Assembly: GCA_040756475.1 (NCBI GenBank)
Contig: JBFLZB010000013.1
Span: forward strand, 1 to 47,175
Source: Thermodesulfobacteriota bacterium
Lineage (GTDB): Bacteria > Desulfobacterota > Deferrisomatia > Deferrisomatales > JACRMM01
Direction of reading: 5' to 3'
DNA: 47,175 bases
Shown: in pieces, positions 1 to 13,088 of the stretch
Numbering within the stretch: position 1 is the first letter of the stretch
Layout: every line of letters starts with the position of its first letter
The notes under the pieces: model-generated
What the model was told of the DNA's origin: nothing
Databases searched by the model: none
What the model saw: only the letters and a program-made list of their open reading frames with translations
Position numbers and translations under genes: made by a program

Positions 1-3000
1 TTGTTCTCATCATAGGTGTATTGGTAGGTGCGGCCGCCGGGGGCCGTGTACGTCTTTCGGAGGCCGTTTCGATAGTAGGTGTACTCGCTTCGTGCCTCGA
101 AGGCCCCGTGGTGAATAACCTCCGAGATCTTCCGGTAGGAGTCGTCGTAGGTGTACTCCCCTGAGGTCGTGCCATCGCTGTAGGTGGTCAAGTTGCCAGC
201 CCGGTCGTATGTGAACGAGGCTTCTTGCACGGGTACGACATCCTCTCCCAAGGCATAGTGCCGGATCGCTGCCAACCGGCCTGCCAAGTCGTACTCCGCC
301 ACCATCCGCTGTCCCCTGGCGTCGGTCCGCTCGATGAGTTGGCCCTCCGCATCGTACGCGTACCGGGTCTCCTGCCCCAGGGGCTGCTCCCTTCTGACGA
401 GCCGGTCGTTGCGGTCGTACTCGAACCACGTGGTGTGTCCGTTGGCGTCGGTCAGGGCGATGCAGTTGTCCCGGGCGTCGTAGGCAAAGGAGACCTCGTG
501 GCCGGCGGCGTCGACGAATCGCACGAGCCGGTTGAGCTCGTCATAGTGGTAGCGGGTTGTTCGACCCTCCTCGTCCGTTTGGGAAATGAGACTACCTGCC
601 CTGTCGTACTCGCGGCGGACCATCTGCTCTTCCAGCCCTGTCCCGATCGCCCGCTCCGCTACGGTGCGCCCCATCTTGTCGTACTCGTACTCCACGACGT
701 ACGTCGGAAAGACGGTGGACGTGGGTCGGGTGCTGGCAGGATCCGCATACTCGACCGCGACTGCGGTCCCGTCTCCATGGACGGTGCGAATCAGGCGTCC
801 TGCGGTATCGTACTCGCTCCAAAGCGCTCTTCCCTCCGGGTCGGTGACCCGGATGACGTTTCCAGAAGGGTCGTAGGCCCTGCTAGTCTTCCCACCCGAA
901 GGATCGGTGACTGCCACAAGTCGGCCGTCCGTGTCATACTCGTACGTCGTGATCTTCCCCTCGGAGTCCACGTCTCCGACCTTCTTCCCCCGCTCGTCGT
1001 ATTCGCTGGAGACTGCATTGCCTAGTGGATCGGTCATGCGGAGGGGGCGCCGGTTGCCGTCGTACTCATAGGTCCAGACGGCGCCCCGGGCGTCTTCGCG
1101 GCGGATCAGGTTCCCCGCCTCGTCCTTGTTCAGCGTCGTGACGTAGCCTTCGGGATCCGTCACGATCTCCAGCCCGTTTGCGTCGTCATACTCCCACGTG
1201 GTCAGAGCCTCCTCGGTGACGGCGTCTCCGAGGCGCCGCTCGGTGTGCCGGCGGCCGTCGGGGTGGTAGGTGTACTCGGTGGTGCGCTCCACGGGGGTTC
1301 CCACCGCCTCGACGAGGCGGGTCACGTTGCCCTTGGCGTCGTACAGGTACTCGGTGACGACGCCGAGCTCGTTGGTCGTCCGGGTCATGTTGGCGGTGCC
1401 CGGCTGGTACTCGTAGGTCACCGTGGCGCCGTCGGGGTAGACGACCTTGGTGACGTTTCCCCACTCGTCTCTCTCTTCGTAGGTGGCGTTTCCGGCGGCG
1501 TCGTAGGTGATGCGGTTTCTCCCGTCGGTCACCACGCGCTCGATGGTGCGGCCGTTCAAGTCGAAGCGGATCTTCTGGCCGAAGCGGTTGAACCAGGTTT
1601 CTTCCACCCGGCCGCTCGGGAGGGTGACCTTGGTGTAGGTCTCGCCCTTGGCCCGGTCGCTCGCCCACTCGAAGTAGGTAGCGGCTCCGGTCTCGGTGGT
1701 GATGCGGGTGACATAGCCCAGGGCGTCGTAGGCGATGGCCGTGGTCTTGCCCCCGCCTTCGTCCTTGAAAGCCAGGCGGCCTTCGGCGTCGTAGGCGTAG
1801 GTGGCCTCGCGGCCTTCGAGGCCCAGGACCCGGGTGAGCCTGCCGCCCGCGTACCGGTACTCCACCTGCCGCCCGGCGGCGCCGCTCACCCGCCACAGCT
1901 TCCCGTCGGCGTCGTACTCGTAGGTGAGGACCTCCCTGCCGTCCCTGTCCGCGGCGGCGAGGATGCGGCCGGTCTCTTCGTCGCGGGCCAGGGTGACCAG
2001 GACGCCGTTTCGGTTTCCGTAGGAGTGCAGCCGGCCCGCGGCGTCGTACTCGCTCCAGCTCCCGCCCGCGTCCTCCCAGCGGTAGCCCTGCGCGGTGGCG
2101 CGCAGGGTGCGGCCGTCCTGGTAGGTGTAGACGCCGGCCCCCACTTGCCGATAGGGCACGCCCCCCCGGGTGATGGTGTCGCCCGCGGAGAGCGGAAGGA
2201 TCAGGTCTTGGCCCTCGTGGTCGAAGTGCCAGGCGTTGTCGTAGTAGCTCCGGGAGACCCTGAGCTGGGTGCCCGGCGCCTGGACGGCGAGGTCCGTGAC
2301 CTCGTCGGTGTACTCGCCCGTGCGAAGATCCACGGCGCTGCGGACCCGGCGGCGGCCCTCGGCGATGCAGCACTGGTCCCACACCTCGCACCACCACTGC
2401 TTGACGATCTGGCAGGTGACCGGTTGGGCCGAGGCGCAGTGGGGCCCACTGCAGCCTCCCGCCCCGCCGCAAAGCCTGCGAACTCCTTCCCGCACCGTGC
2501 CGTTGGCGCACATGTACCGGTACCAGTACTCGGGGCAGCGGCTGTACTGGGGGCACGTCGACGAAGTGCACGCCCCGGCGCCGCCGGCGTTGGGGGGATC
2601 TCGCAGGCAGGTGATCTTGTAGGGGACGGTGTAGGACTGCTGGGCCTCGAGGGCCGAAGGAACGGGCGCCAGGAGCTCGTAGCGGTAGAAGTCGTCCTCG
2701 CCCGCGAAGTCGAACCGCACGGTCTCGGCACGGATCAAGCCGCCGTTGGTGAAGACGAGCTCCCCGGTGCGCACTTCCCCGGCCCGCTGGGGAAGGAGCA
2801 GCACGGCGGGCTCGATTACGACCACCGGCGCCGGCACCTCGGTCTCGTAGGTGGCCCGGGTGACGATCTCGTAGCGGTCCTGGAAGGTCGTGGAGACGAC
2901 CTCCCACTCGACGGTCACGGCCTTGTACTCGAGGAAGACGAGCTCGGCGCCGGTGACCCCCGGCCGGATGCGCAGGGTCCCCACGGCGTCTTCGTGCTTG

Positions 3001-13088: not shown

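What the first reader, a model, noticed from the sequence alone, without database searches (positions are those of the whole stretch)
1..13088. A >4,362-residue lipoprotein-like RHS protein with RCC1 propellers in its N-terminal third
One frame, checked at four distant points, joins a signal peptide, 28 RCC1 units, FN3/PKD/Ig modules and YD repeats. RHS shells often display a variable toxin or effector at the C-terminus, which here lies beyond the edge. RCC1 propellers as the outer part of an RHS giant would be a large interaction platform on the cell surface.
Basis: partly seen in the sequence, partly recalled or inferred. Interest (0 to 1): 0.75.

Follow-up and report, generated by a model that had tools for sequence, protein, structure and literature searches.

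The report
RCC1-headed giant RHS surface protein
A bacterium encodes an exported protein of more than 4,300 residues that joins four ring-shaped 'RCC1' propellers to a long conserved stalk and an RHS shell of the kind that carries toxins; relatives keep the stalk but swap the front piece and the tail, so it looks like a modular cell-surface weapon, although this copy's business end lies beyond the sequenced fragment.

Summary
One uninterrupted frame (window 3-13106, minus strand, at least 4,368 aa) encodes a signal peptide, 28 RCC1 blades, FN3/PKD/Ig modules and at least 770 residues of YD/RHS repeats, then runs off the contig. The 28 blades are two in-register copies of a 14-blade block. Copy A folds confidently as a propeller pair of UVR8/RCC1 type.

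Comparison with relatives changes the picture. Residues 1933-3535 are a conserved stalk of about 1,600 aa found in nine other genomes. RHS (at least 4 genomes) or a pretoxin-HINT domain (4-5) follows it, and RCC1 (window only), beta-helix or LamG-like modules precede it. One relative (G306) keeps the classic polymorphic-toxin layout: RHS plus C-terminal domain, a 4-nt-overlapping small membrane ORF, and a displaced rhs fragment. A partner gene recurs beside the stalk gene in six genomes.

A same-family genome (G001) has a complete RCC1+RHS protein on a different stalk, ending in an M91-like metallopeptidase domain (HELGH; below the family cut-off).

Verdict: most likely an RHS polymorphic-toxin-type surface protein with an RCC1 head; a new variant of a known kind. 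The window gene's own toxin and immunity gene are unseen, and no RHS core is in its assembly. 'Lipoprotein' is undecided.

The parts
1..13106 (-). Giant ORF (>=4,368 aa), open at the contig edge
13115..13119 (-). GGAGG ribosome-binding site before Met1 (13106); AGGAGG also lies before Met7 (13088)
13005..13106 (-). Signal peptide (residues 1-34); lipobox ambiguous (C20 or C22)
   Evidence: sequence inspection
10902..12995 (-). RCC1 block A, residues 38-735: 14 blades, modelled as two 7-bladed propellers
   Evidence: pLDDT 89; UVR8, rmsd 1.5 A over 346 columns
10107..10901 (-). Three FN3-like domains between the RCC1 blocks (residues 736-1000)
8127..10106 (-). RCC1 block B, residues 1001-1660: 14 blades, in-register duplicate of block A with shortened blades 5, 11 and 12
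7311..8126 (-). FN3/PKD linker, residues 1661-1932
2502..7310 (-). Conserved stalk, residues 1933-3535 (Big_7, Glucodextran_B, FN3, carboxypeptidase-regulatory-like)
2352..2615 (-). Cysteine-rich stretch between stalk and RHS (about residues 3498-3585)
3..2318 (-). RHS/YD shell, residues 3597-4368, truncated by the contig end; about 320 aa of shell/core plus the C-terminal domain are missing by comparison with P0002

Best explanation
A Sec-exported, surface-displayed RHS protein of the polymorphic-toxin type. A head of four RCC1 beta-propellers (two copies of a propeller pair, separated by FN3 domains) sits on a conserved stalk of about 1,600 residues made of Ig/FN3/TTR-like domains. The stalk carries an RHS shell. 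By analogy with solved RHS proteins, the shell encloses a cleavable C-terminal domain that acts on a neighbouring or prey cell after the head has bound it. Shown: the architecture, the duplication, the propeller fold of block A (model), and the conserved stalk with exchangeable heads and tails. Inferred: surface location, target binding by RCC1, encapsulation, cleavage, toxicity, and an immunity gene plus a partner gene just beyond the contig edge.
For: Architecture. Propeller model and fold match. Stalk in nine other genomes, 27-43% identity over about 1,600 aa. G208 aligns to the stalk plus RHS of the window protein without interruption (residues 2032-4366, 41%). Tails swap between RHS and PT-HINT (PF07591, E 8e-14), which form two separate sides of the stalk tree (100/100). 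Heads swap: beta-helix, LamG-like in G306 (sequence inspection), RCC1 (window). G306: RHS+CTD, ATGA-overlapping 116-aa membrane ORF, 234-nt rhs fragment at 94% identity just downstream. G060: two tails after near-identical cores, each followed by a small ORF. G001: complete RCC1+RHS protein ending in an M91-like domain (E 5.8e-4, HELGH). PDB sequence matches of the RHS part are RHS/T6SS toxins and teneurins.
Against: The window gene's own core, C-terminal domain and immunity gene were not seen. PT-HINT relatives end only about 40-50 aa after HINT, with no recognisable toxin. No immunity-like gene follows the G001 protein. The G060 and G306 tails match no known toxin family in Pfam, and those of G060 match none in NCBIfam either. 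The M91 match is below Pfam's gathering score (20.7 against 25 bits).
Confidence: 0.6

Rival explanations
1. A giant adhesin or matrix protein: propellers, Ig stalk and RHS shell serve contact or cohesion (teneurin-like use), and the C-terminal domain is not a toxin.
For: Adhesive modules dominate. PT-HINT relatives lack a toxin after HINT. G001 has no adjacent immunity gene. The downstream ORF in G001 weakly matches a cell-cell cohesion protein family, MtsC.
Against: RHS and PT-HINT are the two tails seen on the same stalk, and both are standard toxin-releasing modules. G306 has an overlapping small ORF and a displaced rhs fragment. C-termini vary after conserved cores.
Confidence: 0.27
2. 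A bacterial teneurin-like protein (TLP) in the strict sense, with RCC1 replacing the usual N-terminal adhesion modules.
For: Same general order: N-terminal adhesion domains, TTR-like domain, YD shell, variable C-terminus (PMC13018210). phmmer hits bacterial teneurin-like protein 9ifo (1.6e-20) and teneurins.
Against: No NHL propeller was found in the Pfam scan. RHS/T6SS toxins score higher. FN-plug and TIP domains were not shown.
Confidence: 0.07
3. An assembly chimera: an RCC1 gene joined by mistake to a stalk-RHS gene.
For: No second genome shows RCC1 joined to this stalk. The MAG has 369 contigs.
Against: Frame and GC3 are continuous across the junction. Stalk and RHS are also joined in G208. 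RCC1+RHS in one frame occurs independently in G001. Stalk homologues also carry large repeat domains in front.
Confidence: 0.05

Closest known systems
Sec-dependent RHS polymorphic toxins (Zhang et al. 2012, PMC3482391; beta-propeller and RHS repeats, HINT proteases)
   Same: Signal peptide, RHS repeats; relatives have core, variable C-terminus, immunity-like ORF, displaced rhs fragment and PT-HINT.
   Different: RCC1 head and the 1,600-aa stalk are not among the leader domains seen in the passages read; the paper's only 'RCC1' string is a virus strain name. The window gene's own toxin was not seen.
Bacterial teneurin-like proteins (PMC13018210)
   Same: Variable N-terminal adhesion modules, TTR-like domain, YD shell, polymorphic C-terminus.
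   Different: No NHL propeller detected; four RCC1 propellers far from the shell instead.
RCC1/BLIP-II beta-propellers (UVR8, RPGR, RCC1; PMC9218822)
   Same: 14 four-stranded blades modelled as two UVR8-like 7-bladed propellers.
   Different: Part of an exported RHS giant and duplicated to 28 blades; ligand unknown.
Tc toxin B/C components
   Same: A propeller and an RHS/YD shell in one system.
   Different: No SpvB or integrin-like propeller domain; the propeller is RCC1-type.

Membership tests
RHS/YD-repeat polymorphic toxin | YD/RHS repeats forming the central shell | tested here: met
   PF05593 204 bits, TIGR01643 163 bits; PDB hits to RHS toxins
RHS/YD-repeat polymorphic toxin | RHS-associated core (TIGR03696) closing the shell | tested here: inconclusive
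   Not in the window or anywhere in the assembly, but the ORF is cut by the contig edge; present in G001, in G060 tails and by sequence in G306
RHS/YD-repeat polymorphic toxin | Variable C-terminal effector domain | not testable with these tools
   Beyond the contig edge; relatives show different C-termini
RHS/YD-repeat polymorphic toxin | Adjacent immunity gene | not testable with these tools
   Beyond the edge; immunity-like small ORFs follow the RHS tails in G306 and G060; none recognised in G001
Bacterial teneurin-like protein | NHL propeller (with FN-plug) in front of the YD shell | tested here: not met
   Pfam scan shows no NHL repeats; FN-plug not tested separately
T6SS Rhs effector | N-terminal PAAR or VgrG module | tested here: not met
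   None in Pfam scan; a signal peptide instead
Tc toxin TcB/TcC | SpvB plus integrin-like propeller | tested here: not met
   Pfam scan
RCC1/BLIP-II propeller | Seven-bladed propeller of about 50-residue RCC1 repeats | tested here: met
   PF25390/PF00415, AlphaFold model pLDDT 89, UVR8 match at 1.5 A
Lipoprotein | Lipobox with invariant Cys after the signal peptide | tested here: inconclusive
   LVLCAC fits only a loose pattern; G060 and G001 proteins have none
Conserved stalk family defined here | About 1,600-aa block homologous to window residues 1933-3535 | tested here: met

The most novel reading that the evidence does not exclude
The stalk and its partner gene define an undescribed two-gene class of surface polymorphic-toxin carriers. 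A 1,600-aa stalk accepts interchangeable recognition heads (RCC1 propellers, beta-helix, LamG-like) and interchangeable release modules (RHS shell or PT-HINT). It works with a secreted partner whose own propeller can also be RCC1-type, as in G060.
Probability: 0.35. Interest if true: 0.75.

Novelty: new variant of a known kind. Interest (0 to 1): 0.55.

Why it matters
RHS proteins are usually classed by how they are exported and by their toxin; the part that chooses a target is poorly understood. Here one conserved stalk is seen with different heads and with either of two known toxin-release modules, a natural series for testing what the head does. RCC1 propellers as the recognition end of an RHS giant, found on two unrelated stalks within one family (window and G001), would add a new head type. 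The recurring partner gene may point to an unrecognised component of display or export.

Tried and rejected
Search of the own genome for the missing end: no RHS-associated core and no second RHS-repeat locus; the first 600 bases match no other contig beyond short chance hits; the G001 RHS/C-terminus finds only this ORF. Genome-contig scan with the whole protein found only RCC1 proteins without YD repeats. Fusion across the phylum: of 395 genomes 69 have RCC1, and 40 of the 68 others have an RHS core, but among listed places only G001 has both in one frame; the listings are truncated, so rare further cases are not excluded. Single-sequence AlphaFold of residues 3490-4368: pLDDT 44, not used. 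M91-like tail against PDB sequences: nothing significant. Synteny of window neighbours with relatives: none at the stalk loci. G001 protein as orthologue: rejected, it lacks the stalk. Subtilase/RCC1 giant of G028: no RHS by Pfam. T6SS, TcB/TcC and strict teneurin-like filing: not met.

Full report
WHAT IS THERE. The window begins at base 1 of contig C13 of a 5.0-Mb, 369-contig assembly. On the minus strand one frame runs without a stop from 13106 to the contig edge, at least 4,368 residues. In base shuffles such a stretch has a mean of 81 stops per frame; here there are none, and third-position GC is 0.75-0.93 throughout. Pfam and NCBIfam find RCC1 repeats, FN3, PKD and bacterial Ig domains, a carboxypeptidase-regulatory-like (TTR) domain and RHS/YD repeats. 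A regular-expression count gives exactly 28 blades, 14 at residues 54-704 and 14 at 1025-1638.

THE RCC1 HEAD. The two 14-blade blocks are a duplication: blade i of block A is most like blade i of block B (mean identity 0.60 over a 31-residue core, against 0.52-0.56 for every shift). Both blocks carry the odd Cys blade at position 7 (VWVCGDNWYGQLGNG / VWACGDNLYGQLGNG). AlphaFold with a seven-sequence alignment models block A at mean pLDDT 89. Foldseek matches half of it to UVR8 at 1.5 A over 346 columns, so block A is best read as two seven-bladed propellers. By its duplication, block B should be a second pair, although three of its blades are about 12 residues short; that is inference.

THE STALK. 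Searches with residues 1933-3535 found near-full-length relatives in five other genomes of the order (G201 is split over two frames) and four more in the phylum, nine in all. Identity is 27-43% over about 1,600 residues. In G208 the homology continues without a break through the RHS region (window residues 2032-4366, 41%), so the stalk-RHS junction is real and old. In G060, G106 and G208 the stalk is the window's closest kin; G306 is a more distant RHS-type member, with stalk and RHS in consecutive ORFs. G106 is counted as RHS-type by its place in the tree; its contig ends just past the stalk. In G177, G224, G285, G201 and G037 the stalk is followed by a HINT domain, confirmed as pretoxin HINT (PF07591, 8e-14) for G224 and seen by motif in the others. 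A maximum-likelihood tree of nine stalks puts RHS-type and HINT-type members on opposite sides of one branch (100/100), so one tail exchange suffices. In front of the stalk G060 and G224 have right-handed beta-helix domains, G037 similar beta-helix-like sequence and G306 a LamG-like segment (sequence inspection). Only the window has RCC1 there.

THE TAIL. The window ORF stops at the contig edge, about 320 residues before the end of the shell/core by comparison with G001. No RHS-associated core exists anywhere in the assembly. What the tail may be comes from relatives. In G306 the RHS ORF ends in a variable domain. Its stop overlaps the start of a 116-aa predicted membrane protein by 4 nt (ATGA), and 234 nt of rhs sequence at 94% identity lies just downstream as a displaced fragment, followed by a transposase-like gene. 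In G060, two contigs begin with near-identical RHS cores that end in different C-termini, each followed within about 20 nt by a small ORF. These are recognised signs of RHS polymorphic toxins (PMC3482391; the toxin/immunity pairing of Rhs systems is also the subject of PMC3150448, seen by abstract only; displaced rhs fragments from general knowledge). None of these tails matches a known toxin family.

A SECOND RCC1+RHS PROTEIN. G001, of the same family but another genus, encodes a complete 3,717-aa protein with 14 RCC1 blades, DUF6531, RHS repeats, an RHS core (4.3e-13) and a 177-aa C-terminus with HELGH that matches Peptidase_M91 weakly (E 5.8e-4; 20.7 bits against a cut-off of 25). It lacks the stalk, so it is not an orthologue: RCC1 and RHS were combined on two different frameworks. 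HopH1/NleD-like metallopeptidases are known C-terminal domains of polymorphic toxins (PMC3482391); that M91 is the same group is my own knowledge. No immunity-like gene follows the G001 protein. Among 395 genomes of the phylum, 69 have RCC1 and many have RHS cores, but only G001 and the window show both in one frame in the listed places.

A PARTNER GENE. The 1,167-aa secreted protein of the G306 locus has homologues (27-37%) immediately downstream of the stalk gene in G177, G224, G285, G201 and G037. In G060 its N-terminal 450 residues are fused to RCC1 propellers, in a 2,857-aa protein downstream of one of the RHS tails. Pfam recognises almost nothing else in it. In the window genome it would lie beyond the edge; it is not in the window.

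MECHANISM. Most likely (0.6): Sec export; display of a long stalk whose RCC1 head binds a target; an RHS shell that holds a C-terminal domain released on contact. Export across the outer membrane, anchoring, ligand and toxicity are inferred. The main rival (0.27) is a purely adhesive giant. Strict filing as teneurin-like protein, T6SS Rhs effector or Tc component fails on tested features (no NHL, PAAR/VgrG or SpvB).

NOVELTY. RHS toxins, propellers in RHS proteins and HINT/RHS alternation are known. I found no paper in the held library that joins RCC1 with RHS or polymorphic toxins in this way; most subscription papers are not held. The new elements are the RCC1 head, the shared 1,600-aa stalk with exchangeable ends, and the partner gene.

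Noticed in passing
window 1245-9797 (+): A 2,850-codon open frame on the strand opposite the giant gene; this antisense frame has only 6 stops over 1-13106. It is most likely a shadow of GC-rich codon usage.
   Followed up: partly
L043:4244-5743 (G000:C149): A second RCC1 protein in the same genome (about 500 aa) ending in a Gly-run plus Cys and a short hydrophobic tail (GGGGGGCFLTLLTLR), a possible surface-sorting signal.
   Followed up: no
L143:1736-5236; L096:2051-10471: Conserved partner of the stalk gene: the N-terminal domain is shared, while the downstream part is repeat-rich in most relatives (possibly a propeller) and RCC1-type in G060.
   Followed up: partly
L039:4057-19099 (G001:C26): Three further giant ORFs near the RCC1+RHS gene (one RCC1-rich) share a C-terminal motif (LPDYLSDLTYxGPGYGYW) with the ORF just downstream of it.
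   Followed up: no
window 24760-26244 (-): Multihaem cytochrome (7 Paired_CXXCH stretches) beside a ResB-like gene (26349-27731).
   Followed up: no
L140 (G208:C75), L120 (G060:C5), window 1: Three independent assemblies break inside the RHS part of this gene family, which hints at repeated rhs cores in these genomes.
   Followed up: no
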